Of a DNA stretch of 38,133 bases, positions 5,043-37,891 are shown piece after piece. The notes under the pieces are model-generated. The model had not been told where the DNA came from and did not search any database. It saw nothing but the letters and a program-made list of their open reading frames with translations. How positions within the stretch are numbered: position 1 is the first letter of the stretch; every line of letters begins with the position of its first letter. Made by a program: the position numbers and the translations under genes. This stretch comes from a virus, in the IMG/VR virus record IMGVR_UViG_3300030108_003453, positions 1 to 38,133 of that record, one strand, 5' to 3'.

Positions 5043-5044
5043 CT

Positions 5045-5053
5045 ATTCACCTC
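5045..5053 (-). promoter_or_regulatory. Strong ribosome-binding site for the tail chaperone gene
   Basis: On the minus strand this reads GAGGTGAAT, two bases before the ATG, and overlaps the stop of the large fibre gene. It matches archaeal anti-Shine-Dalgarno pairing over eight or nine bases and suggests high translation relative to the fibre. Confidence 0.6.
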
Positions 5054-19638: not shown

Positions 19639-19983
19639 TTATTGCACCTCTATGACTAATTGTATCTTCACTTCGTTATTAGCACTCTTCTGTATCGGCC
19701 TGAAAACGTGTCGAGTAATCGGCGTGAACCCATTCGTACCACGTAGTTGCACGAAGACTTCCTTCAAAGTTTCATCGTAAGAATCGGCTGTTGTGAGTGT
19801 TCCTTCCACTAGTAGAGTAGCATTGTCGAGTATTTTGACAGTGGGTGTTATGGTAGTGGCAGGACGTCCGGCAGCACCGTCGGATGACGTTGCGGGTGTA
19901 CCATCGAATCCTATGACCATCTCGTTTATGTTGTTGGCTACAGTCTCTATCATCAATCTCTTCAAATGGTCGTTTGCTGGCAT
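19639..19983 (-). CDS. Hypothetical virion protein, 114 aa
   Basis: The product starts with a short helix (NDHLKRLMIETVANNINEMV) and then is beta-rich and Thr-rich. TPTVKILDNATLLVEGTL and FTPITRHVFRPIQKS point to a small beta-sandwich. There is no signal or membrane segment. It sits between the hub-like protein and the fibre block, with one base between its stop and the next ATG, so it is probably a small baseplate or connector component. No family is recognised by name. A very strong ribosome-binding site (GAGAGGTGAAT) suggests many copies are made. Confidence 0.6.
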   Translation of the reverse strand: MPANDHLKRLMIETVANNINEMVIGFDGTPATSSDGAAGRPATTITPTVKILDNATLLVEGTLTTADSYDETLKEVFVQLRGTNGFTPITRHVFRPIQKSANNEVKIQLVIEVQ

Positions 19984-21389
19984 TATAATTCACCTCTCAT
20001 GGTTATTGGCGTTCCCTTGTTTAACCCTAGCACCTTGTGGTTCCCACCTACCCTACCCCTATTTCCGTTTCGCCCGATGAGGAAACCGTTTGCTGCTACT
20101 CTTCTCACAGTGAGCATCGGCACTATCGTGATGTCGAATGTGTTGAAGAAGGAGAAGTTCTCCTCAGTAATCTGCTGAGTCGTGTCGGGATTCTTCACCG
20201 ATGCCTCTGTGATGCCCGCTTCGAAGATGCCCTGCAATATACCGTCTATGCCGCTCTTGATGCTGACGAATGTGAAGTCGGAGGTTCCTCTGCTCATCAC
20301 GTGATTGGCCTCTACGATTACTCTCTTCTCGCCGTCGTACATCACTATGTCACCCGGTCTCAGGTCGAATGCGCTTGGGTGACCCTGCGTTATCACCCTA
20401 CCTAGCATGGCGCTGTTGGCCTTGAGCATCTTCCTAGCGACCCTCCTTGCCTGTTGCATCGATGTGATGGATGCATCGAACACTGGGGTGATGGTCTCTA
20501 TGACGTCGTTGTCGAATCTACCCTGCTGCCTCGACCTGTCGTCCATGGTCACTATCAAGTCCTCGTTCAATGCGACTGCCCTCCCTCTGACCGATACTCT
20601 GTTCTGACTGTCCTCAAGTGGTATGGTGTCCTTGTTTCCAAGCCTGTTGTCAGCATCGAGCACTCTGAGTGAGGAGAAGTATGACATCGGTACGTGCAAT
20701 AGGGAGCCGAACCTGTTGAAGACAGGAACTCCATTGTCATGCTTGGACAGGTATCTAAGCGAGGTGATTAGATTGACCCCATTGAAGTTGGCCGCTAGGA
20801 AGACGTTGCTGTGTTGTCTCCTTTGGGAACTGTTCACCGTGTTGAGCGGGTTTCCTATGGATACGGATGTGATTGAGCCTGTTATGCTCTCCCCCAGTCT
20901 GATTGCCAAATCAGTGGTTCGAAATCCGACATCGATGGTCTGACCGAAGCGCACTGCGTCGTCATCGAAGCCTATGCTGGTGAGTCTCCTCCCTTTCATG
21001 TTTCTCAGTTCAACGCGCAAGCCTTCATTCGTCGTGGTTGTGGTCTTACCCAGTAGTCTCTTGGTTTCATCCGTTGCCCCATACAGCAGCGGGGTCGTTG
21101 TGTTCTTACCCTTGCTGCCGTATATGGCGCTCTTCAGGCTGTGTCCATCCGTCTCACGATGCGTGAGGTAGACTGTCGACTCGCTCTCCACTACGGAGTA
21201 GGCTTTCTCCGTGGCTAGGTCGTAGTTCTCAGCGTTGTTGTTCTCTATCGTGACCTTATTCCCTTCGCTACTGCTCTCGACCTTTGCATAGTGCAGTGCG
21301 TTATCGACGAAGACCGGTGCTCTCAATTTGGTGGCCATGGTGTCTAAGGATGTATCGAAGTGTCCTTGAGTAGGGGTTATTCTGACCAT
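19983..21389 (-). CDS. Probable baseplate hub-like/tail protein, 468 aa
   Basis: The protein of 468 residues follows the giant gene with a one-base overlap (TAATG); GGAGATGGTG lies upstream. Around residues 300-365 it has SMQQARRVARKMLKAN, then FDLRPGDIVMYDGEKRVIVE and NHVM. This order (an alanine/arginine helix, then a LRPGD-type turn, a beta barrel and a conserved histidine) resembles hub proteins of contractile and long tails related to late control gene D and gp27. Residues 1-260 are beta-rich and unassigned, and the C-terminal 90 contain GNRGRVGGNH. Position between the giant protein and the fibres fits a baseplate part. The hub assignment is a pattern-based guess, and a generic minor tail protein is the alternative. 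Confidence 0.42.
   Translation of the reverse strand: MVRITPTQGHFDTSLDTMATKLRAPVFVDNALHYAKVESSSEGNKVTIENNNAENYDLATEKAYSVVESESTVYLTHRETDGHSLKSAIYGSKGKNTTTPLLYGATDETKRLLGKTTTTTNEGLRVELRNMKGRRLTSIGFDDDAVRFGQTIDVGFRTTDLAIRLGESITGSITSVSIGNPLNTVNSSQRRQHSNVFLAANFNGVNLITSLRYLSKHDNGVPVFNRFGSLLHVPMSYFSSLRVLDADNRLGNKDTIPLEDSQNRVSVRGRAVALNEDLIVTMDDRSRQQGRFDNDVIETITPVFDASITSMQQARRVARKMLKANSAMLGRVITQGHPSAFDLRPGDIVMYDGEKRVIVEANHVMSRGTSDFTFVSIKSGIDGILQGIFEAGITEASVKNPDTTQQITEENFSFFNTFDITIVPMLTVRRVAANGFLIGRNGNRGRVGGNHKVLGLNKGTPITMRGEL
19988..19998 (-). promoter_or_regulatory. Strong ribosome-binding site for the 114-aa gene
   Basis: On the minus strand this is GAGAGGTGAAT, a long match to the archaeal anti-Shine-Dalgarno sequence about five bases before the ATG at 19983. 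It lies inside the last codons of the hub-like gene (which end RGEL), so the two genes overlap by one base and are probably coupled. Confidence 0.6.
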
Positions 21390-24300
21390 TACGCACCATC
21401 TCCGCTGTGGTCTGATACGCTGAACTGCACATCACCCTTGTGTCCCTTGCCGTGTAGCGCTTGGCTGAATCTAGCCTTGACTGTGTAGTCCATGCGCAAC
21501 GCCTCCTCATCCGTGTCTAGCGTCTGTCTTCTCCTAGGTGCATCGGAACGATGGTGCTGTAGTGTGTTGTCCGTTATAGTCGCCGTGGTGATGGTGGATA
21601 GTAGGCTGCTAGTGTCATAGCCAGTCACATCCGTGCCGGGCAGTTTGGGGCCTTTGCTGTCAGGGACTTGCAGCGCTGAGTCCCACTTTGCGAATATCGG
21701 TATGTACGGACCGTTGGTATCGGGTATGCTTCTCCCAGTGGGTAGGTTGTCTGCTGCTGTCCTTCCGTTCGGCGTCTCGTAGGTGAAGATACCGTACTTC
21801 CCACCTGATGTCGCTCTTAGGTAGTTCTGAGCATACTGTGGGGATGTGGAATGAAGCGAGTCATGCGGTCTGAATACCTCTACGTGCTTCGCATCCAGTA
21901 GGCGTATCGGTCTGAGTAGGAAGCGCACTAACGAGTCGCTCTCGTTATTCTGCACCGTGTTGCTTGTGAAAGTGGCATCTTGATACGGATTGCTGGTATT
22001 GATGCTGCCAGTCAGATTAGACAGTCCCCATCCCGTGTCATCGAAGACACCAGCATAGTTGAGTGCCTCAAGTATGTAAGAGCCTCCGTACGGCCTGAAT
22101 ATGTTGGTATGGGAGTACTTGTGTACGCTATTGAGGGTCGAGCCTCCGCTCTGCCTTGCGAAAGACACGTTGGTGTAGTTAGCATCGGTCAGGGACGACG
22201 CTCCTGAGAGTAGGTTGGACCCTCCTAGCAGAGTGACCCTTTGACCTATGTTCCTGTCAGTGTGTAGGCTATGTGCCTCGCTGTTGATGACTATGTGACT
22301 CTGCTCCCTGTCTTCGCTTATCTCTGCGTCTAGGCCTATTCTAGGGCTGCTACGTGATATTGCCGATTTGTGCGGTGTGTCCCCTACTACCTTCTCTACT
22401 CTATCGCTCACGACTGCATCGAGTTTGAGGAGACCCTTGTCGTCTATTCCTAGTCTAGCGCTTATGCCACGCTTCACCTCGTCCTTCTGTAGCGTATCGT
22501 CCCTCGGTCTGAGTAGACCATCTCCGAAGAGAGGCTCTGCCGTGTTGTGACTGAGCACGATGCCCGTCTTGCGAATCGGTGCTGATAGTTCCGTGAGCAC
22601 GTCCTCGTTCATCGTAGTTGGGTATCTGATTCCCCTTCCGTTGCCCATGTCCCCTACCCTCAAAGCGTGTGTGGGTGCGAATACGTCCACTAGGTCATTG
22701 TCTGTACCATTGAGGTTCTCGTCATTGTCAGTGCCACCGAAGCGCGGTATCGTGTACCCACCGGTCACGCTGACGTTTCCGTTCGAGAAGTTCACCAACC
22801 CCTTCAGATTGAAGATGGGCTTGGCATCGTTCCATATCCTGCGATACGGGCTTCTGCTGTTCCTTCTGTCGTACTCGTACGCATCTCCTGCATCCCATGC
22901 TGGGCGTATGCCGAATCCGCGCACTGGAGCACGTCTCACGTCCTCACCACGCTCGTTGCCCCACCAGTCCACCAAGTAGTGCTGCGAGGCTATGGATAGG
23001 CTAGTGACGCCTAGTCCATTGACGTCTCCCCACCAGTCCCTCCTGACTGCGCTGGGGTTGCGTATCGTCCGTACGGGTGCGCCGAACGGCCTAGTCATCC
23101 TACGACCATCGCTGTACCTGACCTGCATCTCCTGCTTGTCGTGTCCCAGCATGCCAGCGAAGTTCGTCTGCCTCTCCATCACACCGACGTACGTCACTGG
23201 GAACGTGCTGCTACTCGTCCCGTTGCCGCCCCACTCCCAGTCCGTGGACTCCATCTGCACGAGTGGCCCGCTGTCTGCATCCGTGGTGTTCTTGCCCTCC
23301 ACGTTGGCGGTGTTCTCGTAGACCATACGGGCTGGCGATATGCCGTACCGTGGTCTGTTAGTGGCTTGCAGTACACCGAAACGGTGACCGTACGCTCTCC
23401 TCTCGGTGCCACTTGCGGTCGCTGTCGTGATTCCAGCGGAAACGGCATAACTACCATCGTCATCGCTGTCTACGAACTTGTACTGCGTGTCAGATGCGAA
23501 GTTGGCCCTCTGTGATGTGCTGTGTGCGTTCCATGTGGTGCCTACCATCGAGTAGTACCCCAAGTCACTGGCCTGTGCACCACCACGAGTACCACATGGC
23601 CAGTACCCTGCGAGCATGACATTAGTGCCACCAGCGTCATGAGTGCTATCACCAGCAACTGCTGTGCCGTCTTTCAGGGAGACGCTAGGCGTCTTGATGA
23701 GGAAGTCGAATGGTCCGTTGCTTATCGCATATGAGAAATCGTGGTAGTGTATGGTCTCGAAGTGCTCAGGTAGGCTGTTGTATGGCCTCTTGTCCACGGC
23801 ATTGCCGCCGAATGACGTCCTGCTATCCGAGAAGTATGTGTTAGGCCTACCTAGATTATGATGCCACATGCATAAGAATGCATCAGGAGTGTATCCTGAG
23901 TTGGTGTCATCGTTCCCTGATATGACGTCATCGAGTATGTTTGCGAATATGCTCTTTCTCTTATCCGTAATTATAGTGCCAGTGGGTATATTGTTGAATG
24001 CGCTGGACATTCTCAGAACCGCTCCATCGAATAGATTCGTCCAAAATGCATCACTACCGCCGGATACCGCTAGATAATCGCCCTTGTTTATGTCGAAGTT
24101 GCTTCCACTGCGGCTTAGAAGCGGTTTAGAGTACTTATTGCCGTTTTTAGCAGTGTATTCGATTACTTCGGAATAGTAGTTTTTGAGGGGGAAGAGGTTT
24201 GCGTTGTCGACTTGTATCCTACCTGCGCTAGCATTGAAACTAATCACGGTACTTTTGGGTATTATACTGGTAGTTTGCATATTACCTGAGTATATATCTA

Positions 24301-27300
24301 TATATGCAGAACTATATCCGTTAATTGTCAACTGTTTTCCTATACTTCCAAATGTATTTCTGCATATATAATAATAATCGTCAGGTGTATATTGGGACAT
24401 TTTTAGGAATGCACTGGAATTACCTGTGGGGTCTTCCTTGTGCAGTATGCTCCACCAAGGTATATTCAGGGTATATCCGGGAGTCGCATCGCTCATCATC
24501 ACAGAATATGGGAATCCCCTGCGTGTGAATGAGGGGCTTTCCGTCAATTGCACTCCTAGTGGGTTGTATGACATCAATGTGGGTATGTTTGTGAACTGGC
24601 TACCGGGGTCGGGGTTTATGTCTAGCATCACCTCATTCACGAATACCTCGCATCCCCTGACATCAACACCCACTTCCTTGGCTAGCACTAGGGTCAAGCC
24701 GCCTTTGGTCGCATCCTCCTTTATCGCTACGACTGTGTTTATCTGCTGGCTGGTTAGTTTGCCGCTGTTGTGGTATCCCACTAGTTGATTGTCGAATACG
24801 TTCGGTTGTATCACTATCTGATACGCACCTACCTCAACCGGGTCGGGGAAGTGTCTACCTAGTGTGTAGTTCCCTGCTGCCTCAAGCACTACGCTATGTC
24901 CGCCTAGTTTGTTTATGTCACCCGCATTCGTGCCACTGGAAGCCAGTACACCATATCCGTCGTATCTGATGCCTGTCTCGAACATCAGTGAGAACGCACC
25001 TCCGTGTATGTCGCTTGGACCACTTGGTGCGGCGTTTATCCCGCTGAAGTTTATCTCAGGCTCCAGTGGGTTGATGTTGTTCGACAGGTTGGTTATGTCT
25101 GCTTTCTTGTTTGTCTGACTCTTCAGGTTGTCGAAGAATGCCGTGTCCGTGAAACCGGTGAGCATGCCGTAGTCCAGCAAGTGCCTCTTGTACAGGGACT
25201 GGTACGCTGGGTGTGCCCAGTGTCCCGGAAGCATGGGCATGGTGGGTGTGACGAAGTGGTGACCCATCCTAGGGAAGGGCATCGGTGTTAGTTTGGGTCT
25301 GCTGTATGCGTTGTAGGCAACTGAGTCCCCGTTGAAGTACAGTGTCTCCGCCATGTCAGGGGAGTTGCCACTCACCTCAGCGTGGTCACGCATCCTCCTC
25401 GCAGCGAAGAAGCGCGTGCTACCAGCCGGAACGTAGTATGACGGTACTACCTTCACTGTCGCCTTCGGCTCGTACTCCCCGCTTGTAGCGTTCAGGGTGA
25501 AGTACTTCGATAGGAAGTCTGACAGTTCTATGTCACCTGTCACTCCCTTGAACCAGTTTTGCTCTGCACCCGATGTGCCTGTGCTCGTGTATGACAGGAC
25601 CACACCCTCCTCGGTCACAGTGTCGTACATCCTGATGAATCGCCTGTTGTCACTGACCTCCTTAGTCCCGAAGCCTGAGTAGTTCAGTATCTCATTACCG
25701 GCAGAAACAGTGATATTGTTGTCAAAAACGGGATTATTCTTCAAACCGACGCTCATCTTGAGGTTGCCATTGGTAGCATCCCACGATGATACGTTGCCAC
25801 CGTAGTTCTTCACACCAAGTGCATGAGTGTACACGGTTGGGTAGCGATGAGTGTGGCTGTGTCCCATCTTCGTGACATGGAAGAACAGAGTTCTGTCATG
25901 CAACTCGTAGGACGTATCGAGTGGAGCGTCATTGTTCCATGCCCCCACTTGCGAGTCGAACGTCACCGGGTCTATCCTCTCCCAGTTGTGGTCTTCGTAA
26001 GTGGGTGACATCCTAGGTCCAACCACTGAGTTATTGAAAAGTTGATTGGTGTACGATGACCCTAAGTCGGGGTGATGCATACCACCACTACCTATGGTCT
26101 CATTCTGATACGCTTGGAGCGGGTCGAAGCCTGACCTCACCACTATGTTGCCCGGTATGGAGTCAGGGTTGGGTAGCATTACTTTCAGATTGGGGGTGTT
26201 GCCGCTGTTAGCCAGTGCTGGTGCTCTACCTCCGATGCTTCTGTTGGTCGTTGGCCTGAAGCCGCGTATGACAGTCCCCAGTGGGCTACCGCCCTCTATC
26301 TTGTGAATCTCGCCAGCATCGTCGATGACTCTGATTGACCTGAACTGCACGTCCTCGTTCGGTATAATCAGTACGTTGTTGACTGTGTACGGGTTCTTCC
26401 TGACCAACTCAGGGTGGGAGAGTTCCTGCGCTTGCAGGACTGGTAGCATGGCGCTGTTAGTGGTCTCGAACGTGAATCTGACGTTGCCTAGCAGTTTCTC
26501 ACCCGTGGTGTACGCTATACCGCTGGATATCCTAGTGGTCCAAGGCACTGCCCCAAGCCCCCTTGCGTTGGATGTGGGTAGCGATAGGTTGCCGCCATCC
26601 ATCCTCTTCCACACTATGTTCTCCACGGAGAAGTTGTGCACTGCTGAGTCCTCTTGCATTTGGAATGCGTTGACGTCCCCCAACCAGTACGGTGTGGGGT
26701 AGGATGTGGTGTGCGCTGTGCTGTACTTGTGCGCTGCTGTGTTTCTCTCGGCATCATCGGTCTCAAGCAATGCGGAACCCACGGAGTGGTCCAAGTCGAA
26801 GAGCAGGTCTCCTATCTTGTTGAGGCCGGGGACTGCATTCTTCAGTTTCCTGTCTTTTGCGCTACCATCGCCACCGGTGACTGCCGAGTGGAAGTACGAG
26901 CCTGTGCCTGTCGTAGCGCTGAATGTGGTGGATGCCCAGTCAGCGTTCGTGAGTGTGCCACTGGGTAGGGTAGTGCCGTCTACTATGAGTGCCTCTACGT
27001 TAGGACCAGCATTCGCTGGTGCGATGAACCTGTCCTCACCGTGTATCCTCTCGTCCCATCTAGTAGTGCCCGCGTATTGGATGGGGTTGGTGGATTGGCC
27101 GTGTACGTGCAACCAGTCGCCTGTACCTTCGATGCCATCGTTGTCCCTCTTGCATATGAGAGTGGACTCAGCATCGTACGACACCACTACGAATGCATGT
27201 GAGAACAACCCCTGCGGTCGAGTGAGTTCCTCCGGGAGCGTGCCAGCGTAGTTCGATGGATGTGCCCATTGGTTTGCGTTGCCCGTCTCATCCGTGTCGT

Positions 27301-30300
27301 TGAAGTTGTATGTGTATGTGTCCCATCCCCCACCGCTACCGGTGATGTGGTTGTACTTCGTGTAGAAGTTTGCCTTCTTCACATGTGTGCCTAGGGCATT
27401 TCCTATGCCGTCTATGCTAGGTGTGCTCTCAGGGCTGCCGAACATCGATGTGACGACTGGTACGTGGCTGTGCAGTCCCACTACCGTACCAGCAGTGCCG
27501 TATGGGGAGAAAGCCAGCATGGGGTGATAGGCACCTAGCCCTGCTGCGTAGCCGCTGGATGTGGTAGTGCTTGAGTTCTTGGTGACGCTCGTTGTTATCT
27601 TGAGGCTGTTCAGGTACGAGTACCTCTCCCCGTGCCATCCTACCGCGCCTATCGGACGTGTCCTGTCAATCGCATCTGCTATGCCTGAGAAGTGCACTTG
27701 GCACATGTGGTCCCTGCTTGTGGCGTTCTCGTTGTTGAACCTCATAGTCCCAGCCTTGGTCCAAACGTAGATGTCGTAAGACGAGTCTATCGTTGGGAAC
27801 GAGGCCGCTGTGAAAGTGGAGGAGTTCTCTGCCTTGCTCGCTCCCTTGATTCTGTTAGGAGCCATGTAGAACTTGACCTTCCAGTTGCTGCTGTCCTTCA
27901 GCACCTCCCTAGAGTGATATGGCACCCATGCGTAGTCCTCGGACCCGCCATCGTCCTTGTAGAGCCTGAGCCATCCCGATGTGGGTATCTGCTCTAGGTA
28001 TGCTTGTGTGAATGTCGTGCCATTCCCGTCTGCCGTGCCTGAGAGTATGTGGTACCCAGCACTGGCTGACACGTCATATGTGCCCACAGCACCGATGTCT
28101 ACCCATGCGTATCTGTCCTGACGCATCGCGTTGCCCATGGATGGCATGTGAGTGCCTCCCATGGCTTTGAGCGCACCAGCACCGGGGAAGGCGTTGATGG
28201 CCGCTCCTACTACGGTAGCCAGTTCCTCACCGTTCTGACATCGCGTCCCGTCCACCACGATGTACTCCATCTTGGCATCACTGACGGACACGTCATCTGA
28301 CACGTTGCCCCCCTGTCCTCCGCTAGCCACACCGTCGATGTAGTCCAGTATCCTGCCGGTCATCACCCCTGACGCTCTGAATGCAGTCGGGTGCACTTGG
28401 TTCGCGGCTAACCAGTGAGGCCCTCCACCACCAGCCCCATTCACTGCTCCTTTGATTCTTGTAGCCTTGTTGGGATGTGGCGGGTTGAATGTGATTTGGT
28501 TGTCCATCCAGTGCCCTCCGGGATGGAAGCCCCCATCCATGTGAAACACCGTGTCCGCTGCCATCGCTATGCCGAAGCCGATGGTCGGGGTGTGGGAACG
28601 TGGGAACATGAGCGCTAGGTTGGATGCGTTAGTCGGGGTGTCATCGTTGAACTGCTGTCCGTAGTGCCTACCGTGTGCTGGTCTCTGCGCTAGTCTACCC
28701 TTGTTGGCGTATCCGGCGGGACTCTCCCAGTTGACCATCGCCCTCCAGTGGAATCCAGCCCTAGCGTCGTAGTTTGCATTGCGGAATGGGGTGAAGTCGA
28801 GCGAGGTGTCCATCGGCGGTGGTGGCGATGCCCAGTGGTTGCCGACCTTGACCACTCTGCCCGGATACGGCTCTAGCGTATTGCTACCCACATTGGCGCT
28901 GAATGACGTAGCACCGGCAGTGGATACCTCCTTGGTGAATGGGAATGCCTGTCCCGGACCGAATATCAGGTAGGTGGTCTTGCTGTCGATGTCAACCCCG
29001 TCAACGTGGTCTTCGTACCGAGCAGTCTGATGTGCGAACCTGAGAACGAGTGGCACTGCCTTGGCCTTGATGAGTTCATGAGTCAGGTCGTTGTTGCCAC
29101 CGGGGTTGCTGTACATCGTCGCACCCTTGTCTAGGTCGGGAGACAGCACGTTGTCCTTGTTGAACGCTGGAGGCGTGATGCTGCCCCTGTGTTGGTTGCA
29201 CAGTGCTGCGCCGGGGAAGAAGGAGAACATGGCATTAGCATCGAGTATGGCATGGCTGGTGGAAATCTCGCTGGCATTCTGCAATCCTGCTACTCCCATG
29301 GGGCCGTTTGCGTACGGGTGGGTGTAGAACGAGGAGTAGTCGTTTTGCGTACCGTCATTCACGTCCATCACTACACCGCTGAACCCTCCACCGAAGAACA
29401 GTGGTACGCTGTGGTCGTCCCCGCTCTTGCCCCCTCTGAAGTACACTATCGGCTCTGACATGACGCTACCAATGGACCTGAGACCCGCGAACTCCCTAGC
29501 CCTCTTCGGGTCTGCGAACAGCGAGAATATGAAATCGTTAGCGGGAACTGTGGCTGGCCAATTTTGAGATTGCGAGTTTTCGTCCAGCACGAAGGTCGAG
29601 GAGTTGTTCCAAGTTGCTATGGCTGATATGTCCTCTCTGAGGAATATTTTCTTCTTCTCACCCACTGATTGAGCACTCGTCCCCTTTGGAATGAGGAAAC
29701 CACCATTCTGAGTTTTTGTGCTGACTACAAAGAGCCTGTTGTTCCAATTGGTCTGATTAGTGCTGCTCGCTACGAACTCTCCCATCGGATTGTCTATCTT
29801 GGGTAGGATGTGGTCCCCGTACGAGCGGGTGAATCTCATGCCCTTGAGGTTCTCCATCCAAGTCCGGGTATCGACTGGAGTGTTCTGAGAGTCGACTATG
29901 ATGGGTGTCGCGGTATTTGCTTTAGGCCCCCTGCCAACGGTTCTTATCTCAAGCAGGTTGTAAGGTATGTATCCGCAGTCTATCGATTCGCCAGCGTCTA
30001 TGTCATCATCGGTCACACCGTAAGCATTCAGTCCGAAGAACCAGTCAGGACGAGTCCCCTCCCCAGTAGGCTCGTGCGCTCCTTCCAACTCTCCGAACTC
30101 CAAGTGAGCGGCCTTGATTCCCAAGTCCCTCTGCAAGGTCGCACTGTAGTCATCGCTCAGTGGCTTCACGTTGCTGTTGGGGTTGAATGCCCTTATCTTG
30201 ATTGAATCGGGTTTGATGCCCCATTCCAAGAAGGGTCTGCCGTCAGTGGCGTACATGTCGGTGCAGTCGAAGGATAAGCCTCCTTCTGAGTTGATTTCGT

Positions 30301-33300
30301 CGCTAGTCGCGTTTATCGCCGCTGCCATGGCTGCCGCTATGACCTCATCAGTCAGTATGCAGGTCCAGTTGATGGTTGGTGACATCAGATACGTGCCGCT
30401 TGAGATTGCTGGTGTGACTCCGTAGAACACGTTTCCTACTCTCTTGCTGTACGAGTAGACCTTGCCTATGTCTCCCGTGTGCACGCTCGCTTGGAATACT
30501 CCGTTCTCCTTCGGGAAGCCTAGGTATGACAGTTGGTTGTTCTTGTCGCCAGCACTGTTGAAACTGGGTATCGGGCTTTCTATGGCTGTGACTTCGAGAG
30601 CGGAGTTGGTGCTGCTGTATGTGGTGGTCATGCTGGTGACGATGCTAGGTGCTGGCACTCCACGCCATTCGTTGCCAAACCAACCATTCGCGGTGCCAGT
30701 CATGCTGCTTCTGCCCGTGGCGTCTCCCGACCCATGCATGTGTGCGCCTATCGTGAAACCGCCATCTGCCACCGACCTGTCATCGAAGAATATGCATACC
30801 TCATCCTCTATCGTATTCGGTAGGACTGTGTTCTCGTTCGCTATGGAATCTCCCATCTTCTTGTAAATCAAGCGTACGCCTGACTCGATACCAACGTTGT
30901 TCTTGAATCTGAATCCGTATATCGGCTGTCTGCCAATCGAATCCGAGGTTATCTCACTGGATAGTATGTGGGATGAGTAGTCAGACAGGGCTGGTGTGCC
31001 ATATCTGTTGTTGGATGATGAACTGCCCTTCTTGCCCATTCCGTATCTACCCGCTATGGGACTCCAACCCGGAATGCCAGCAGCGACCACTCCTCCGAAG
31101 TTTATCCTGCTCATTGCCCTCGTGCCTGTTCTAAGACCCTTGACGAGGGATGAGGATGAGCCTTTGACATCTAGCGACTCAAGCGAAGACGTGTTGTTGC
31201 TGCTACCACTGAGTGACTCGGATACTGCTCTGAGTAGGTTCGAGTCATCGAAGTCTGCGACGCTCGTGACGTCCTCACCGATGTTCTGCGTGCTGATGTA
31301 CTGCTGTAGCGTGGTGACTGGTGCGAATGGTCTACCGTGCTTGTTGAGCGGCATCGGTGCAGGATGCATGTTCTCCCCTTCGCTCTCTTCGGGTAGTGCC
31401 CAAAAGTTGCGCCATCTTCCACCGTGACCTATGAGGAACTGGGGTTGGTATGGGGTCTGTCCCTTGCTGTTGTCAAGCCATGCGCAGAAGTTCCTGCCGC
31501 TTGCGCCCGGCACTGTGCTGTGTATGACTACGGTGAATCCCCTGTCCCCATTGAGGTCTTCCACCTCCCTTCCTATGTGAGCGCGGACGTATCCCATGTG
31601 GTTTCCCTTGTTGTTGTCATCGACATGCCAAAACGGGGATGGGTCGTGAGCAGACCCTCCTGCTGTCCTAGCGTTGAGTGCGGCATGCTGGTTGATGAGC
31701 CTGACAATCTCCTCTGCTGCGTTCTGCACATTGGTGACTCCCTCCCTCTGTGATACCTCTCCCATGTCTATCGTGAGTCTCCTGACGAAATCCATGTTGG
31801 TCCACTGCGACCTCTTGTCCAAACTACCGAACTCGTGTGATGACAGGTCCAGCGTCTCGCTTCGTATTCCCCTCAGACACAGGAAGGCAGGGACGACCCT
31901 AGTCCCATCGGGAGTGTCGAAGAATGTGGATGGGTCTCTCATCGTCCTGCCTGAACCCGCTGTGTTTCTCCAGTCAATCAGCAATCCAGTGAAGAAGTCG
32001 GCCTCAGTCGTCTGTATCCTGCTCAGTGAGTGTAGTTTCTCCGCCTTCTGATAAAGCACAACCTCGTCCTTAGTCCTGAGAGTCGTGCTGTTGCCTGACT
32101 TGTACCCATCGACTATGCCGCCATAGGAGTACCCGGTGTGTACGTGATGACCATGAGCCTTGCCGTACAGTCGGCTACCTGCTATCACCCTACCATCAGT
32201 GGGAAGGGCCACGGACAGACTCGCTATCGTGGTGCTGTCGATGAGGTCGCTGGTGTGCCTGTTGGCTAGGTCATGCGCGTATGCGCTCTCTATGAACTTG
32301 GATTGGTGAGTGCTTCTGATGTACGGGTTCTGAGATGGGAATCCGTTTGCGACGTCTATCTGAGTGGTCCATGGGCTTGGGCCAGCAGCGTTGTACTTGG
32401 CGTTGATTGAGTGTAGCGGGTTGGATGTGCTTCCATTCTCCTCGACTACCTCCTTGGGCCAACCTAGTTCTGTGGCTTGGGGACTGCTCTGCACCTGCAT
32501 GTGTATGTCTTGGAACGCTACGAACTCCCTGTCGTTCCTCACATCGTACAGAAGAACCCTAGCGTGGTCATCAGTGGACAGGTATGGGTCTATGTATGCC
32601 ACGGTGGGTGCTTTGCTCGTTGCTATCCCCATTGCGGCATAGTTCTCCTCCATGGTCCGGTTGACGTGCTGCACGTAGTTCCTAGCGGTCTCTAGGCATG
32701 TGTCTCCTATCAGGAAGTTCTCTATGGGAACGCTGTCCCTAGGGTTGTCGTCGACCTGAGCCACCCCACCGTTGAACTCCTCCCAAACCTGAGACTCGTC
32801 ATAGACTCCCCTGCTCTTGGCAAACAGCCCTTCCACGGCATGGGGGTTGTTGTACGACATGTTAGCCCATATCGTGTCGCCGTTTCGCAATCCGCCGGGT
32901 GCGTAGGGATTCAGCCAAGTGGCGTTGAGAACCGCATCCCTGTCGATGTAGTCTCCCATGGAGACTCGAACGTCATACGTGGCAGCGGGTATGGACCAAG
33001 AGACGCTGGTTCTCGTTATGTTGACTACCTGCACTCCACTGGCGTTGACGGTCTCGATGTCGGTGACGGTTCCCACTGGGTAGAATACGCCATTGTAAGT
33101 GCCGCTGGAGGAGTAGAAGTAGATGTAGTCCCCCTTCTTGAGATTACCTCCATGCAGGTCGTTCAGGCTCTTACCTGCTGCTGTCGTCACTGTGATGGCG
33201 TTTCCCGATATGGTTGGGGATGTCCCGACCTTGAATGTGGAGCCTAGTAGTTCGTCATACAGGACGCTATTGTAATCGGAGGTGCTACCCTCGTTGTACA

Positions 33301-36300
33301 CTGGGTTGACACTACCGGTGAGATTCGTGTCCTGTATGGCCTTCCTGCTCTTCCTAGCGAGGTATATCTCCTTCTTGTCCAATGAAGCAGGATAGGACAA
33401 GGAGGAATCGTAGTACCCTAGCACTATGCTCGTCTTGGGTATGTTGACGCCGGTCTTCACGTTCTTGAGATGACCGTGGTACTGATACTTGTATATCGTA
33501 CCATTATCATCGTGCTCTACTACATAGAGCAATTGTCCTTGTTCAGTCGGTGCTGCTGCAAGATTGTCGTATCCCAAGTCGGGGAACTTCTTGAAGTCCT
33601 CTTCATTGAGGGTTGCTATCAACACCTTCTCGTTCGGAACCACGCCTATGCTCTCTATCGTCTGAGCCTGTACTATTCCCCTAGCCCTGCCCGTCTCCAC
33701 TCGTGCTGCATGTGGGTTGCTCTCAGGACCAGCCTTGAACTCGACTGCGCTGACGTATTGTCTGAGGCCGTAGTCGACGTTGCCACCCTGCGTCTTGACG
33801 CTAGCCGCGTCATGGTAGAACTCTCCCCTGCTCTCGAAGTCACTGGAGGGTGTGAGACTGTCTGACGCCATTGGTAAGGCATTCTCGACCACCGGACCGC
33901 CAACGAAGAGGGACACTCCCTCTCTCAGGCTGGAGACGAAGTTCTCGGAGACGTTGTAGTCCACACTCACGATTTGTATGTAGCCGTCGGTAGGTGGGTC
34001 GTTGTTGTACCATGCCCACTCTCCCTCTGCCGTGAAGACCCTCCTGTATCTGTGTTGGTTGACTCCTGCTATTCTCGCACTCCCTGAATGGGTGGTTGCG
34101 CTTGGGAACACCTTCGGGTCGCTCACTGTCAATTGGCGATTGCTATCGTCCCAAGACTGCAAGGTGGCTGACTTCACGTGCTTGTTCTGAGATATCGCAT
34201 ATGCGTATGCGGACTGAGCCTCCCTGTCTGCCGGTTCTATGTCCTTCATCCTACGACCTACCGGACTAGGATTGAAGGTGTGTGCTGTATGAGTGGCATC
34301 TATGTGTATCTTGAATCCGTTGTCAGGACCGACGTTGTTGTGGAAGAACTGCTTTGAGAACACTGGTATCTCAGCCAATGCTCTAGTGCTAGCGTACTGA
34401 GTGCCTAGTTGGTAGTCGTGGGATACATCGTTGAGGGACTGGTGCATCCTGTCATTGATGGTGGTCCCGTTGTCCAAGTCGCTGTTCTCGCCGAAGTCAG
34501 CCTCACTCATGATGGTGAAGTTTCCGTAGACGGTAGCAGTGGTCCCACTGACGTCCCCTTTCATGTACCCAGCAGCATTGAGTAGTTCCGCGATGGTAGT
34601 GGATTCCCTTCCCCTGCTGCTTACGAAATCCCCGCTGCCTATCGCTGCTGATGAGAATGTGAATGTGCTACCTCCCTTGCTGGAGTACTTTGCGCTTGTG
34701 CCATCAGGCAGGTATATCCTACCTACCTTCGGGAATCCGTATGTGCCCCAACTGCTGAGTGATGTGGAGTTGTTGTTGAGAGGCTCTATGTGCAGAGTCC
34801 CGCTACCACTGGTGTAGTCGATATCCAACCTAGTTGCCGTGACTGCGTATGCCCTGCGAGTGGAGTACGACTCGTGCGCTAGCACGCTTCTCTGATTCAC
34901 TGGTGCTGTGTCCATGGCACCCTGTCCGGGACCGCCGAGCGTGACGGTGACCACAGGTGCATTAGGCTCTATCTCCTTGACTATGTGCGAATCGGGGCTT
35001 CCGCTACCAGTGAGGCTCACTGAGCGTGTGACTGCGGATTCTGCGAGACCAACGCATTCGATGGTAGTGAGACTCGCATTCTCCCCCTCGCTCTCCTTTA
35101 TCGCTCTCACTCGTGCTCTACTCAATAGGTACATCGGGGTCAAAACGTTGAACGGAGATGTGTCTTTGATTATCGATTTCAATGATGACAGTTGGTTGGT
35201 TCTCCGCCTGTCTGATGGTTGGACTATGAGTCTGATGTTGGATATCTCATTGGTCACCTCTATGTTGTCTATGATGTCGAATACCTCGTGCACATGCGAT
35301 GACACGTGTGGTATTCCCGTGTCGAACTCACCTGCTGAGGGTGACGATGCGACAGTCTCAGGCTCTAGCCTCTCGAATATCCCTTTGTCAGTCAAATCGG
35401 TCTCAGTGAATATCTTGTCCATCGTCATTCTGTTGAAGACGGACTCGTGAGTGCCAGTCGTGCTGGACGACTCCCGTATGACTGAGGGAGTGCTGTTGAC
35501 CGAGGTCGATACTGCTCTAGGTGTGTAGTTCGCTGGAGACAGGCTCTCATCCAGTGCGAAATCGGCTTCGTACCCTTCGCTGTTGTCACCTATCATGGAG
35601 TGTGGAGTGGCTAGTATAGCGTCCGCAGTATCAACTTCTATGATGCCCCCTGCTGAGTACAGCGTCTTGCCTGATGCTAGTGATGCCGCGATAGCATCAT
35701 ATACGTATGACCCTCCTCCAGTCGGAACGTCCGATGCTGGGACAGTCTTCTCGACCATCAACAATGGCTGGTATCTCCTTGCTGTGCCAGTGCCGCTGCC
35801 AGTTCCACTGGCTGTGAATACAGTGCCCACGTCATTGTCTGCCGCACCTATGCTAGTGAAGGATGTATTACCAGCGCTGACAATGACGTATTGCTTGCCT
35901 GATACGAAAGAACCAGCGTTGGTGATGGCATGCATGCTCTCGCCAGTCAGGTCTATCGCATTGTAGTGAATCTCCACATATGGTGCGAACTTGGTGTTAG
36001 TCGTCTTCAACTGCGGTACGTGGAGAAGCGCGACCCTGCTCTTGCTGGATGGTCTCAGATGATGCTTTCTGAGGTCAGACTCGTACTTGGTCTGTAATGT
36101 GGGGGCAGGGCCTTTGAGTAGGAATGGGGTGAAGTCAAAGTCGTCTCCCCCTATGGCTATGAGTTTTCGCTTACCAGCGGGCGGGCTGTTGGTGTTCTGA
36201 TACGAGTTGATGGCTGACGTCACTGTCCCAGTGTTGACTACTCTGCTGACCTCCAGTTGGTCGAAGTCCCGATAGATGTCTATTTGGCTGTTGACCGCTA

Positions 36301-37891
36301 TTTGCTGGTCTACGCCATCCTGCATCTCATCATACACCAAGTCGATGAGTTCCGCTCTTGCGTTGCCCCTCTGATTGACTATCTCGTCAGATGCTCTCGG
36401 TAGTATGGTCAAGAATGAATGACCATCCACGTGATTTCGCGCATGCCTACCACTGTGACCTATCTTCCAACCGTCGTTGTCTGTGAGTGGCCATGCTACA
36501 GCATAGGGGTTGGTGCTGTCGGTGTCAGTCGTAGCCATCCTAGAGGAGAAGACGAATCCATGGTGGTCGAACCCGCTTTCGTCTATGACCATCTGCCCGG
36601 TCCTGTCTATGATTTGAGTGTTGTAGTGCGGGGGTTGGTACACCTTTCCTGATTTGTTGTCAATGAGCAGGTCTGCTCCTATGACGACGAAGTAGTCATC
36701 TACATCAGTGGTCCTAGTCTTGTTTATCACACCGACTAGTCCGTTGTTGGTGTCGACGCTGTGGTCTAGGTGTATGCTGGATATCGTGAGCACACCAGTC
36801 TCCACGTTTATGGAGTGCAACCTGACTCTCTCAGGTGGAGTGGCATTGGGCTTGAGCGTCTTCCTGTTTATGCTTCCGGGGTTTATCAGGAGGTTGTAAG
36901 GCACGTGCGCTACAGTCCTATTGACGTTCGTCCCGGTGGACGCATCGTATATCTCATAGGAGCCTGAACTGTAGGGGGATGCCGTGAAGTCGACTGTGCC
37001 TGTGCTGACGGTGTTGCCAGTGAGCGTCTTGGCCAACTCCTTCGCATCCGCTGCTGTCACTGTCATGGTGCTGAGTGTGTCGGTGTCATAGCCACCAGTC
37101 AGAGTGGTGAACGTGTATTCCTTCTCCACAGGTGCAATCGGCTCCTCGAACCTATAGAGCAGGATTGTGTCGTCACCGGCCAGCGGGCAGTTGTTGTTGG
37201 CCATCGTGTTCTTGAAATCAGCAGCGATGTGGACTGCCTCCATGACTCCGCGGAAGTTTCCTCCCTTGCCCCCTACGTACGTGTTGGAGTTTGACTGCAC
37301 CAGTCCTAGAGTCGCTTCGAAGTTCTTCTTGGCCATGAGAATGCCATTGATGTAGAGTTCTATCGACTTGGGTCTCACTGCGGCTACGACGTGCAGCAGT
37401 TCCCTGTGGTTCCTGTTGAGGTCCGTGGCCAAGCCGTAATTGCCAGTGTCGAACCTGTTGTAGGAGTCGTGCATCCCACCGAACGTAGAGCGAGGGAAGA
37501 CAGTGCCGTCGTACCTGTTGCCAGCGGAAACCTCGTCCGCAGTCGATATCTCATGGCTCTCCCTGATTCCTTGGTTGTTCAGAGTGACTCTGAACTTGGC
37601 AGGACCGGGAGTGTCAACGCTTCCCACTGTGAGTTTGAACTGTCCTTCCTTCTCGATTACCGTGCCACCGCAGTCAGGCATCACCCAAGCCTCGAATGTC
37701 ATGAATGGGTAGTTGGCGCTTATGACGCTCTTGGACGGGTCGGAGTTCCTGTCACTGAGCATTCGACTGACGTCGCTACCCCCTTCGGGGTTCTTCTTGC
37801 CGACAGCCTTGAACGCGCCTTCGGGGATGAGGATGCTATCGCTTACCCCATCGAAGAAGAATGCGTGGTTCGTCTTGCCTATTGCCGTCAT
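21389..37891 (-). CDS. Giant virion/adhesin-like protein, 5500 aa
   Basis: One uninterrupted frame of 16.5 kb encodes about 5500 residues. Residues about 50-235 resemble a LamG/concanavalin-like lectin domain (NYPFMTFEAWVMP, then HVVAAVRPKSIELYINGILM and NTYVGGKGGNFRG). Near 655-700 is a marine-phage-type element (FTSIGAADNDVGTVFTASGT). The rest is long, aromatic- and Gly/Ser/Asn-rich, beta-type sequence without named domains. Three segments of the type AAAINA recur near 2067, 2520 and 3230, hinting at repeated units. A histidine cluster (GHSHTHRYPTVYTH) lies near 4007. No protease, lysozyme or nucleotide-binding motif, signal peptide or membrane span was seen. The start follows GTGAT. It probably forms a large tail, baseplate or fibre structure that contacts the host surface. 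A tape measure is unlikely because long coiled coils are absent. Confidence 0.75.
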   Translation of the reverse strand: MTAIGKTNHAFFFDGVSDSILIPEGAFKAVGKKNPEGGSDVSRMLSDRNSDPSKSVISANYPFMTFEAWVMPDCGGTVIEKEGQFKLTVGSVDTPGPAKFRVTLNNQGIRESHEISTADEVSAGNRYDGTVFPRSTFGGMHDSYNRFDTGNYGLATDLNRNHRELLHVVAAVRPKSIELYINGILMAKKNFEATLGLVQSNSNTYVGGKGGNFRGVMEAVHIAADFKNTMANNNCPLAGDDTILLYRFEEPIAPVEKEYTFTTLTGGYDTDTLSTMTVTAADAKELAKTLTGNTVSTGTVDFTASPYSSGSYEIYDASTGTNVNRTVAHVPYNLLINPGSINRKTLKPNATPPERVRLHSINVETGVLTISSIHLDHSVDTNNGLVGVINKTRTTDVDDYFVVIGADLLIDNKSGKVYQPPHYNTQIIDRTGQMVIDESGFDHHGFVFSSRMATTDTDSTNPYAVAWPLTDNDGWKIGHSGRHARNHVDGHSFLTILPRASDEIVNQRGNARAELIDLVYDEMQDGVDQQIAVNSQIDIYRDFDQLEVSRVVNTGTVTSAINSYQNTNSPPAGKRKLIAIGGDDFDFTPFLLKGPAPTLQTKYESDLRKHHLRPSSKSRVALLHVPQLKTTNTKFAPYVEIHYNAIDLTGESMHAITNAGSFVSGKQYVIVSAGNTSFTSIGAADNDVGTVFTASGTGSGTGTARRYQPLLMVEKTVPASDVPTGGGSYVYDAIAASLASGKTLYSAGGIIEVDTADAILATPHSMIGDNSEGYEADFALDESLSPANYTPRAVSTSVNSTPSVIRESSSTTGTHESVFNRMTMDKIFTETDLTDKGIFERLEPETVASSPSAGEFDTGIPHVSSHVHEVFDIIDNIEVTNEISNIRLIVQPSDRRRTNQLSSLKSIIKDTSPFNVLTPMYLLSRARVRAIKESEGENASLTTIECVGLAESAVTRSVSLTGSGSPDSHIVKEIEPNAPVVTVTLGGPGQGAMDTAPVNQRSVLAHESYSTRRAYAVTATRLDIDYTSGSGTLHIEPLNNNSTSLSSWGTYGFPKVGRIYLPDGTSAKYSSKGGSTFTFSSAAIGSGDFVSSRGRESTTIAELLNAAGYMKGDVSGTTATVYGNFTIMSEADFGENSDLDNGTTINDRMHQSLNDVSHDYQLGTQYASTRALAEIPVFSKQFFHNNVGPDNGFKIHIDATHTAHTFNPSPVGRRMKDIEPADREAQSAYAYAISQNKHVKSATLQSWDDSNRQLTVSDPKVFPSATTHSGSARIAGVNQHRYRRVFTAEGEWAWYNNDPPTDGYIQIVSVDYNVSENFVSSLREGVSLFVGGPVVENALPMASDSLTPSSDFESRGEFYHDAASVKTQGGNVDYGLRQYVSAVEFKAGPESNPHAARVETGRARGIVQAQTIESIGVVPNEKVLIATLNEEDFKKFPDLGYDNLAAAPTEQGQLLYVVEHDDNGTIYKYQYHGHLKNVKTGVNIPKTSIVLGYYDSSLSYPASLDKKEIYLARKSRKAIQDTNLTGSVNPVYNEGSTSDYNSVLYDELLGSTFKVGTSPTISGNAITVTTAAGKSLNDLHGGNLKKGDYIYFYSSSGTYNGVFYPVGTVTDIETVNASGVQVVNITRTSVSWSIPAATYDVRVSMGDYIDRDAVLNATWLNPYAPGGLRNGDTIWANMSYNNPHAVEGLFAKSRGVYDESQVWEEFNGGVAQVDDNPRDSVPIENFLIGDTCLETARNYVQHVNRTMEENYAAMGIATSKAPTVAYIDPYLSTDDHARVLLYDVRNDREFVAFQDIHMQVQSSPQATELGWPKEVVEENGSTSNPLHSINAKYNAAGPSPWTTQIDVANGFPSQNPYIRSTHQSKFIESAYAHDLANRHTSDLIDSTTIASLSVALPTDGRVIAGSRLYGKAHGHHVHTGYSYGGIVDGYKSGNSTTLRTKDEVVLYQKAEKLHSLSRIQTTEADFFTGLLIDWRNTAGSGRTMRDPSTFFDTPDGTRVVPAFLCLRGIRSETLDLSSHEFGSLDKRSQWTNMDFVRRLTIDMGEVSQREGVTNVQNAAEEIVRLINQHAALNARTAGGSAHDPSPFWHVDDNNKGNHMGYVRAHIGREVEDLNGDRGFTVVIHSTVPGASGRNFCAWLDNSKGQTPYQPQFLIGHGGRWRNFWALPEESEGENMHPAPMPLNKHGRPFAPVTTLQQYISTQNIGEDVTSVADFDDSNLLRAVSESLSGSSNNTSSLESLDVKGSSSSLVKGLRTGTRAMSRINFGGVVAAGIPGWSPIAGRYGMGKKGSSSSNNRYGTPALSDYSSHILSSEITSDSIGRQPIYGFRFKNNVGIESGVRLIYKKMGDSIANENTVLPNTIEDEVCIFFDDRSVADGGFTIGAHMHGSGDATGRSSMTGTANGWFGNEWRGVPAPSIVTSMTTTYSSTNSALEVTAIESPIPSFNSAGDKNNQLSYLGFPKENGVFQASVHTGDIGKVYSYSKRVGNVFYGVTPAISSGTYLMSPTINWTCILTDEVIAAAMAAAINATSDEINSEGGLSFDCTDMYATDGRPFLEWGIKPDSIKIRAFNPNSNVKPLSDDYSATLQRDLGIKAAHLEFGELEGAHEPTGEGTRPDWFFGLNAYGVTDDDIDAGESIDCGYIPYNLLEIRTVGRGPKANTATPIIVDSQNTPVDTRTWMENLKGMRFTRSYGDHILPKIDNPMGEFVASSTNQTNWNNRLFVVSTKTQNGGFLIPKGTSAQSVGEKKKIFLREDISAIATWNNSSTFVLDENSQSQNWPATVPANDFIFSLFADPKRAREFAGLRSIGSVMSEPIVYFRGGKSGDDHSVPLFFGGGFSGVVMDVNDGTQNDYSSFYTHPYANGPMGVAGLQNASEISTSHAILDANAMFSFFPGAALCNQHRGSITPPAFNKDNVLSPDLDKGATMYSNPGGNNDLTHELIKAKAVPLVLRFAHQTARYEDHVDGVDIDSKTTYLIFGPGQAFPFTKEVSTAGATSFSANVGSNTLEPYPGRVVKVGNHWASPPPPMDTSLDFTPFRNANYDARAGFHWRAMVNWESPAGYANKGRLAQRPAHGRHYGQQFNDDTPTNASNLALMFPRSHTPTIGFGIAMAADTVFHMDGGFHPGGHWMDNQITFNPPHPNKATRIKGAVNGAGGGGPHWLAANQVHPTAFRASGVMTGRILDYIDGVASGGQGGNVSDDVSVSDAKMEYIVVDGTRCQNGEELATVVGAAINAFPGAGALKAMGGTHMPSMGNAMRQDRYAWVDIGAVGTYDVSASAGYHILSGTADGNGTTFTQAYLEQIPTSGWLRLYKDDGGSEDYAWVPYHSREVLKDSSNWKVKFYMAPNRIKGASKAENSSTFTAASFPTIDSSYDIYVWTKAGTMRFNNENATSRDHMCQVHFSGIADAIDRTRPIGAVGWHGERYSYLNSLKITTSVTKNSSTTTSSGYAAGLGAYHPMLAFSPYGTAGTVVGLHSHVPVVTSMFGSPESTPSIDGIGNALGTHVKKANFYTKYNHITGSGGGWDTYTYNFNDTDETGNANQWAHPSNYAGTLPEELTRPQGLFSHAFVVVSYDAESTLICKRDNDGIEGTGDWLHVHGQSTNPIQYAGTTRWDERIHGEDRFIAPANAGPNVEALIVDGTTLPSGTLTNADWASTTFSATTGTGSYFHSAVTGGDGSAKDRKLKNAVPGLNKIGDLLFDLDHSVGSALLETDDAERNTAAHKYSTAHTTSYPTPYWLGDVNAFQMQEDSAVHNFSVENIVWKRMDGGNLSLPTSNARGLGAVPWTTRISSGIAYTTGEKLLGNVRFTFETTNSAMLPVLQAQELSHPELVRKNPYTVNNVLIIPNEDVQFRSIRVIDDAGEIHKIEGGSPLGTVIRGFRPTTNRSIGGRAPALANSGNTPNLKVMLPNPDSIPGNIVVRSGFDPLQAYQNETIGSGGMHHPDLGSSYTNQLFNNSVVGPRMSPTYEDHNWERIDPVTFDSQVGAWNNDAPLDTSYELHDRTLFFHVTKMGHSHTHRYPTVYTHALGVKNYGGNVSSWDATNGNLKMSVGLKNNPVFDNNITVSAGNEILNYSGFGTKEVSDNRRFIRMYDTVTEEGVVLSYTSTGTSGAEQNWFKGVTGDIELSDFLSKYFTLNATSGEYEPKATVKVVPSYYVPAGSTRFFAARRMRDHAEVSGNSPDMAETLYFNGDSVAYNAYSRPKLTPMPFPRMGHHFVTPTMPMLPGHWAHPAYQSLYKRHLLDYGMLTGFTDTAFFDNLKSQTNKKADITNLSNNINPLEPEINFSGINAAPSGPSDIHGGAFSLMFETGIRYDGYGVLASSGTNAGDINKLGGHSVVLEAAGNYTLGRHFPDPVEVGAYQIVIQPNVFDNQLVGYHNSGKLTSQQINTVVAIKEDATKGGLTLVLAKEVGVDVRGCEVFVNEVMLDINPDPGSQFTNIPTLMSYNPLGVQLTESPSFTRRGFPYSVMMSDATPGYTLNIPWWSILHKEDPTGNSSAFLKMSQYTPDDYYYICRNTFGSIGKQLTINGYSSAYIDIYSGNMQTTSIIPKSTVISFNASAGRIQVDNANLFPLKNYYSEVIEYTAKNGNKYSKPLLSRSGSNFDINKGDYLAVSGGSDAFWTNLFDGAVLRMSSAFNNIPTGTIITDKRKSIFANILDDVISGNDDTNSGYTPDAFLCMWHHNLGRPNTYFSDSRTSFGGNAVDKRPYNSLPEHFETIHYHDFSYAISNGPFDFLIKTPSVSLKDGTAVAGDSTHDAGGTNVMLAGYWPCGTRGGAQASDLGYYSMVGTTWNAHSTSQRANFASDTQYKFVDSDDDGSYAVSAGITTATASGTERRAYGHRFGVLQATNRPRYGISPARMVYENTANVEGKNTTDADSGPLVQMESTDWEWGGNGTSSSTFPVTYVGVMERQTNFAGMLGHDKQEMQVRYSDGRRMTRPFGAPVRTIRNPSAVRRDWWGDVNGLGVTSLSIASQHYLVDWWGNERGEDVRRAPVRGFGIRPAWDAGDAYEYDRRNSRSPYRRIWNDAKPIFNLKGLVNFSNGNVSVTGGYTIPRFGGTDNDENLNGTDNDLVDVFAPTHALRVGDMGNGRGIRYPTTMNEDVLTELSAPIRKTGIVLSHNTAEPLFGDGLLRPRDDTLQKDEVKRGISARLGIDDKGLLKLDAVVSDRVEKVVGDTPHKSAISRSSPRIGLDAEISEDREQSHIVINSEAHSLHTDRNIGQRVTLLGGSNLLSGASSLTDANYTNVSFARQSGGSTLNSVHKYSHTNIFRPYGGSYILEALNYAGVFDDTGWGLSNLTGSINTSNPYQDATFTSNTVQNNESDSLVRFLLRPIRLLDAKHVEVFRPHDSLHSTSPQYAQNYLRATSGGKYGIFTYETPNGRTAADNLPTGRSIPDTNGPYIPIFAKWDSALQVPDSKGPKLPGTDVTGYDTSSLLSTITTATITDNTLQHHRSDAPRRRQTLDTDEEALRMDYTVKARFSQALHGKGHKGDVQFSVSDHSGDGA
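23860..24440 (-). other. AT-rich island inside the 5500-aa gene
   Basis: Base composition drops sharply within the open frame. By hand count, 24241-24420 has 56 G+C in 180 (31%), against 34 of 60 at 28021-28080 in the same gene. The encoded piece (about residues 4484-4677) is rich in Tyr, Ile, Asn and Lys (DDYYYICRNTFGSIGKQLTI) and unlike its flanks. The frame is intact across both edges. Confidence 0.6.

What the first reader, a model, noticed from the sequence alone, without database searches (positions are those of the whole stretch)
21389..37891. A single 5500-residue virion-type ORF
An unbroken 16.5-kb frame is exceptional for a virus gene and takes more than 40% of this window. Only the lectin-like N-terminus and one short phage-type element are recognisable; over 4500 residues have no named domain. 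It lies between tail-type genes and lacks the long coiled coils of tape measures, so it may be a new class of giant adhesin or tail structure.
Basis: partly seen in the sequence, partly recalled or inferred. Interest (0 to 1): 0.72.

Follow-up and report, generated by a model that had tools for sequence, protein, structure and literature searches.

The report
Giant tail-tip protein, marine archaeal viruses
A family of marine viruses that probably infect archaea makes one 5,500-residue (0.6 MDa) structural protein that is conserved along its whole length and most likely builds the tip of the virus tail, which would make it a very large tail part that no paper found here describes.

Summary
The minus strand holds one open frame of 5,500 codons (21389-37891). 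It is no artefact: about 40 other marine virus contigs carry an intact homologue of 5,313-6,362 residues without a stop, and 339 contigs encode its C-terminal part. Identity to distant relatives is 48-63% over the full length, and dN/dS is below 0.14 in every 500-codon stretch.

The gene is not the tape measure, which is a separate 301-residue gene two places upstream. It lies between that gene's neighbour and a hub-like gene, where tail-tip proteins are encoded. It is conserved almost like the tail tube and far more than the three fibre genes downstream, which argues against a host-specific adhesin. Two domains have recognisable folds: an N-terminal lectin-type (ConA/LamG) fold, and a small beta-barrel whose best structural matches are the lambda tail-tip protein gpJ. 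The rest could not be modelled well enough to name.

Best explanation (0.6): a giant tail-tip/baseplate scaffold of a Poseidoniales-virus-like (magrovirus-like) group, marked by a virus-encoded thermosome. A homologue is already in the BFVD/UniProt structure set, unnamed; I found no paper that describes it.

The parts
21389..37891 (-). Giant structural gene, 5,500 aa, 597 kDa
37145..37846 (-). N-terminal ConA/LamG/pentraxin-type domain, aa 16-249
   Evidence: Pfam Laminin_G_3 E 6e-5, below its gathering score; VIA Z 15.0, rmsd 3.0, 158 aligned
35771..35923 (-). Roaming ~45-50 aa cassette, aa ~657-706; at the same site or at ~2398 or ~2708 in some relatives, absent from the others
34502..34846 (-). 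Small beta domain, aa 1016-1130, locally well modelled; its core is similar by profile to aa 2438-2503
31247..32944 (-). Conserved central block, aa 1650-2215, with invariant HGHxVH motif at aa 1913-1918
23990..24307 (-). Beta-barrel domain, aa ~4529-4634; best structural matches are lambda gpJ residues 484-566
   Evidence: pLDDT mostly 77-94; VIA Z 8.6, rmsd 2.6, 79 aligned; Foldseek E 3e-3
22172..23194 (-). C-terminal conserved block, aa ~4900-5240, found in 339 viral contigs
19983..21389 (-). 468-aa hub-like protein that follows the giant gene in relatives
   Evidence: PF13550 in 6 of 24 members; XkdQ-related 9g8s E 0.17; best profile match HVTV-1 gene 133; synteny
19639..19983 (-). 114-aa conserved tail-module protein
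   Evidence: 58-82% identity in relatives beyond the closest two
17166..19637 (-). 823-aa baseplate-to-fibre connector-like protein
   Evidence: phrog_967 E 8e-8
13629..17156 (-). 1,175-aa fibre-type protein, variable
5052..13601 (-). 2,849-aa fibre-type protein with NVAIG repeats, poorly conserved
2100..3704 (+). Group II chaperonin (thermosome)
   Evidence: PF00118 E 1e-113; best PDB hits are archaeal group II chaperonins

Best explanation
The gene encodes a giant, conserved structural protein of the tail tip (baseplate) of a non-contractile tailed virus of marine archaea. Shown: one intact coding frame under purifying selection along its whole length, in the tail module, directly before a hub-like gene and after a separate short tape measure and its neighbour; lectin-type N-terminal fold; one gpJ-like beta-barrel near the C-terminus; slow evolution compared with fibre genes. 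Inferred: several copies (probably 3 or 6, as for hubs and tail-tip rings) assemble around the hub at the end of a short tail into a complex of about 2-4 MDa that carries the fibres and holds the tail closed, and that rearranges or is shed when the fibres bind the host, so that DNA can leave. The lectin domain may give weak binding to surface glycans; host specificity would rest mainly on the variable fibre genes downstream. The virus-encoded thermosome may help fold this or other virion proteins.
For: Place in operon: TerL, portal, protease, MCP, connectors, tail tube (PF18906), 301-aa tape measure (several PHROG tape-measure families), 418-aa gene, giant, hub-like gene. Conservation order against G005: MCP part 92, 114-aa protein 82, protease 75, tube 69, giant 63, hub-like 46 over the 124 residues covered (~50 in other relatives), fibre-type genes 43/33/37, tape measure 27. 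Full-length conservation with invariant residues along nearly the whole length in 25 sequences. gpJ beta-barrel: lambda tail tip is rank 1-3 in VIA (Z 8.3-8.6) and Ur-lambda rank 4, against Z 5.9 for the first unrelated fold. HFTV1, a solved archaeal siphovirus, also has a short tape measure (341 aa) followed by connector, fibre and hub genes, and sheds its baseplate on ejection (PMC12494034).
Against: No direct virion evidence. Over 80% of the chain has no confident model (mean pLDDT 42 and 47 in the two stretches tried; the rest was not modelled). The gpJ match covers ~80 residues, is only weakly significant in Foldseek (E 3e-3), and the same barrel resembles ATP-synthase barrels at Z 5.3-5.9. 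The hub assignment of the neighbour rests on weak matches. The absence of a sheath gene was not tested with a dedicated search. Isolated archaeal viruses looked at (HVTV-1, HFTV1) have no such gene, so position is the main argument.
Confidence: 0.6

Rival explanations
1. A giant tail fibre or adhesin: long chains that reach out from the tail and bind host surface glycans through the lectin domain.
For: ConA/LamG fold at the N-terminus; beta-rich make-up rich in Gly/Ser/Thr/Asn and no coiled coil; in HFTV1 the fibre gene lies at the matching place between connector and hub (PMC12494034).
Against: Conserved almost like the tail tube along its whole length, lectin part included, with no hypervariable tip; three other fibre-type genes downstream are variable; no long tandem repeat array, only weak repeats.
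Confidence: 0.2
2. Another structural role: a protein that wraps the capsid, neck or tail outside, or an internal protein ejected with the DNA.
For: Most of it has no assigned fold; its most conserved blocks evolve about as slowly as the protease and tail tube.
Against: Lies inside the distal-tail gene order; beta-rich, lectin-bearing make-up is unlike the helical ejected proteins known to me; no membrane-like stretch (max 19-residue hydropathy 1.4).
Confidence: 0.15
3. A tape-measure protein.
For: Large and in the tail module.
Against: A separate 301-aa gene matches several tape-measure families and has orthologues of ~280-445 aa in relatives; the giant lacks coiled coils, has a lectin fold, and would imply a tail of ~0.8 um at 0.15 nm per residue (rule of thumb, from memory).
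Confidence: 0.02
4. Assembly or frame artefact.
For: The record has N gaps elsewhere.
Against: About 40 independent intact homologues; uniformly low dN/dS.
Confidence: 0.01

Closest known systems
Lambda gpJ and other siphophage tail-tip hub proteins
   Same: Operon place near the end of the tail genes; a beta-barrel like gpJ residues 484-566
   Different: About five times longer; no detectable sequence similarity; a separate hub-like gene follows; most domains unassigned
HFTV1 baseplate (gp41 connector, gp42 fibre, gp44 hub)
   Same: Archaeal siphovirus, short tape measure, tail-tip genes directly after it; hub record annotated as carrying a carbohydrate-binding domain (PMC12494034)
   Different: Largest HFTV1 tail-tip protein is 954 aa; no profile match to any giant segment
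HVTV-1 (Druskaviridae) tail module
   Same: Tape measure, then a small gene, then gene 133, the best profile match of the 468-aa neighbour
   Different: No giant gene in the same interval
BFVD entry A0A1B1IU10
   Same: 52% and 63% identity to the N-terminal and the aa 4150-4665 models; split into at least four pieces of ~1,380 aa, so also a giant
   Different: Unnamed in the tables at hand; its source organism could not be looked up
Marine group II (Poseidoniales) virus clades / magroviruses
   Same: Group II chaperonin, as in all 18 genomes of clade 1 of Nishimura et al. 2017 (PMC5332604); ~100-kb genomes with two opposed modules; ATP-dependent ligase, AAA ATPase best matched by clamp-loader-type families, ERCC4 nuclease in relative G005
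   Different: Reference magrovirus genomes are not in the collections here, so no tree was made; no giant gene is mentioned in the passages read

Membership tests
Tape-measure proteins | Gene between tail assembly chaperones and distal tail genes that matches tape-measure profiles | tested here: not met
   The 301-aa gene fills that place and matches tape-measure PHROGs (E to 6e-6); the giant matches none
Tape-measure proteins | Long helical or coiled-coil make-up | tested here: not met
   Longest run without Gly/Pro is 40 of 5,500 residues; the folded parts of both models are mainly beta
Siphovirus tail-tip hub (gpJ/Tal/BPH type) | Operon position in the distal tail module | tested here: met
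Siphovirus tail-tip hub (gpJ/Tal/BPH type) | Hub domain set (gp27-like ring domains) | tested here: inconclusive
   One gpJ-like barrel only (Z 8.6, rmsd 2.6, 79 aligned); the neighbour gene is the better hub candidate
Siphovirus tail-tip hub (gpJ/Tal/BPH type) | Trimer or hexamer at the tail end | not testable with these tools
   Needs cryo-EM or proteomics
Tail fibres / receptor-binding adhesins | Host-interacting region that varies fast between relatives | tested here: not met
   dN/dS 0.03-0.14 throughout; 48-63% identity end to end; the fibre genes downstream do vary
Tail fibres / receptor-binding adhesins | Carbohydrate-binding fold | tested here: met
   ConA-like fold aa 16-249, Z 15; binding itself untested
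Magrovirales / Poseidoniales viruses | Virus-encoded chaperonin of marine group II type | tested here: inconclusive
   Group II chaperonin present and in 19 of 23 large relatives; no tree with MGII sequences
Magrovirales / Poseidoniales viruses | Placement in MCP and PolB trees | not tested
   Reference genomes ON649702, OR863078, PP497040 not held

The most novel reading that the evidence does not exclude
A new class of megadalton tail-tip machine, built from one 5,300-6,400-residue chain whose many conserved domains have no counterpart in phage tails, folded with the help of a virus-encoded thermosome and serving to breach the unusual envelope of planktonic archaea.
Probability: 0.3. Interest if true: 0.8.

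Novelty: new variant of a known kind. Interest (0 to 1): 0.55.

Why it matters
One gene takes about 16 kb of a ~100-kb genome, is kept whole by a group seen in at least 339 marine contigs, and is constrained along its entire length. If it is the tail tip, these viruses carry one of the largest single-chain tail proteins known to me, and the way tailed viruses enter the abundant, uncultured surface-ocean archaea would rest on a machine that neither isolated archaeal virus examined here has. It also gives a sensitive marker gene for the group and a concrete target for virion proteomics.

Tried and rejected
tblastn of both end pieces against 50,697 phage records: no match. Pfam and PHROGs on five overlapping pieces: only the LamG hit and sub-threshold noise. 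PDB sequence profiles of three stretches: nothing meaningful. GTDB genome contigs with the C-terminal profile: no relative, so no provirus or host link found; the thermosome query there also failed, so the host was not confirmed by sequence. BLAST self-comparison: no repeats; profile self-comparison gives a few pairs (aa ~1035~2438, 2424~4036, ~1228~4533) with scores 33-38 against a best of 30 for reversed profiles, so weak domain duplication only. Giant segments against HFTV1 and HVTV-1 tail proteins: nothing. AlphaFold of aa 1-1150 and 4150-4665: mostly low confidence; no fold is claimed for the uncertain parts. Conserved catalytic motifs: no HExxH; the invariant HGHxVH (aa 1913) was noted but not interpreted. 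Literature searches found no description of the giant gene; the Philosof 2017 and Prabhu 2025 papers were not held.

Full report
WHAT IS THERE. The window is the first 38,133 bases of a 65,082-base virus record. The minus strand carries one frame from 37891 to 21389, 5,500 aa, 597 kDa, pI 5.6. The chance of such a frame is nil. It starts 4 bases after the stop of a 418-aa gene and ends in a TAATG overlap with a 468-aa gene, so the three are read as one operon.

IS IT REAL. Relatives were found with protein pieces in IMG/VR: 10 contigs with the N-terminus, 16 with the C-terminus, then 278 and 339 with C-terminal profiles. In about 40 records other than the window the homologous frame is complete or nearly so; lengths are 5,313-6,362 aa, with no internal stop anywhere. 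Alignment of 25 full or nearly full sequences shows 48-63% identity to the distant ones over the whole chain, with invariant residues along nearly its full length. Against the 90%- and 86%-identical relatives, dN/dS is 0.09 and 0.06 overall and never above 0.14 in any 500-codon window. No split or clearly shortened version was seen. An assembly join or frame error is ruled out.

WHERE IT SITS. Reading the operon from the right end of the record: terminase, portal, protease, capsid protein, connectors, tail tube (PF18906, E 2e-7), tail-assembly genes, a 301-aa protein that matches several tape-measure families, a 418-aa protein, the giant, a 468-aa protein, a 114-aa protein, an 823-aa protein like a baseplate-fibre connector (phrog_967, E 8e-8), and fibre-type proteins of 1,175 and 2,849 aa. 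The 468-aa protein is probably the hub: six of 24 homologues hit PF13550, its best PDB profile match is an XkdQ-related protein although weak (E 0.17), and among twelve halovirus tail proteins its best match is HVTV-1 gene 133, with the HFTV1 hub second. Orthologues follow the giant gene in relatives. The giant therefore lies between a tail-end connector-like gene and the hub. It is not the tape measure.

HOW IT EVOLVES. Against the 102-kb relative G005 the identities are: capsid protein part 92, 114-aa protein 82, protease 75, tube 69, giant 63, hub-like 46 over the 124 residues covered (about 50 in other relatives), 418-aa 46, fibre-type genes 43, 33 and 37 (the last two partial), tape measure 27. 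The giant behaves like a core structural protein, not like a receptor-binding one. This is the main argument against the adhesin reading.

WHAT IT IS MADE OF. Residues 16-249 adopt a ConA/LamG/pentraxin fold (VIA Z 15.0, rmsd 3.0, 158 aligned). A ~45-50-residue cassette at ~660-706 is a clean insertion; in relatives it is at the same site or at ~2398 or ~2708 (two carry two copies), and most lack it; similar stretches occur in a virion structural protein of cyanophage S-TIM54 and in two other Caudoviricetes. In the 4150-4665 stretch only ~4529-4634 models well; its best matches are three lambda tail-tip entries (Z 8.6, 8.4, 8.3; rmsd 2.5-2.6; 78-79 aligned) and Ur-lambda (7.8), with unrelated barrels from Z 5.9 down; Foldseek also ranks lambda first, at E 3e-3. 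Profile self-comparison suggests a few duplicated small beta domains, above a reversed-profile control. Everything else is unassigned; both models are mostly low confidence, and aa 1151-4149 and 4666-5500 were not modelled.

WHO THE VIRUS IS. A plus-strand gene next door is a group II chaperonin; it occurs in 19 of 23 large relatives. For the other four I judge from the giant's place in the contig that they end before the expected position. Nishimura et al. 2017 found the group II chaperonin in all 18 genomes of one clade of presumed marine group II euryarchaeal viruses and bacterial-type chaperonins in the other three clades (PMC5332604). G005 also carries an ATP-dependent ligase, an AAA ATPase best matched by clamp-loader-type families and an ERCC4 nuclease. 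A Poseidoniales host is likely but was not tested by trees.

MECHANISM. Shown: intact, conserved, tail-module gene with a lectin fold and a gpJ-like barrel. Inferred: it forms the body of the tail tip around the hub, carries the fibres, and opens or falls off on contact, as the HFTV1 baseplate does (PMC12494034). With 3-6 copies it would weigh about 1.8-3.6 MDa (arithmetic).

NOVELTY. A homologue is already deposited (A0A1B1IU10 in BFVD), unnamed. No paper found here describes the giant gene, but two key papers were not available. I file it as a new variant of a known kind (tail-tip structural proteins), with a real chance that it is a new class.

Noticed in passing
window 35771-35923 (-): A ~45-50 aa cassette that sits at three different sites in relatives of the giant protein and also in unrelated marine virion genes; it looks like a roaming in-frame domain insertion.
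   Followed up: partly
window 2100-3704 (+): Virus-encoded group II chaperonin (thermosome), kept in 19 of 23 large relatives that carry the giant gene; the other four appear to end before its place.
   Followed up: partly
window 5052-13601 (-): 2,849-aa fibre-type protein with many 'NVAIG.xAL' repeats resembling trimeric-adhesin heads, poorly conserved even in a 90% relative.
   Followed up: no
record bases 38134-38143, 42603-42612, 47761-47770: Three 10-base N gaps in the scaffold; the window ends at the first, and the last breaks the capsid gene frame.
   Followed up: yes
aa 1913-1918 of the giant, window ~32138-32155 (-): Invariant HGHxVH motif in the most conserved central block; possible metal site as in some phage spikes and fibres.
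   Followed up: no
L130, L137, L138: One subgroup has an even longer version of 6,029-6,362 aa, the extra length made up of insertions.
   Followed up: no
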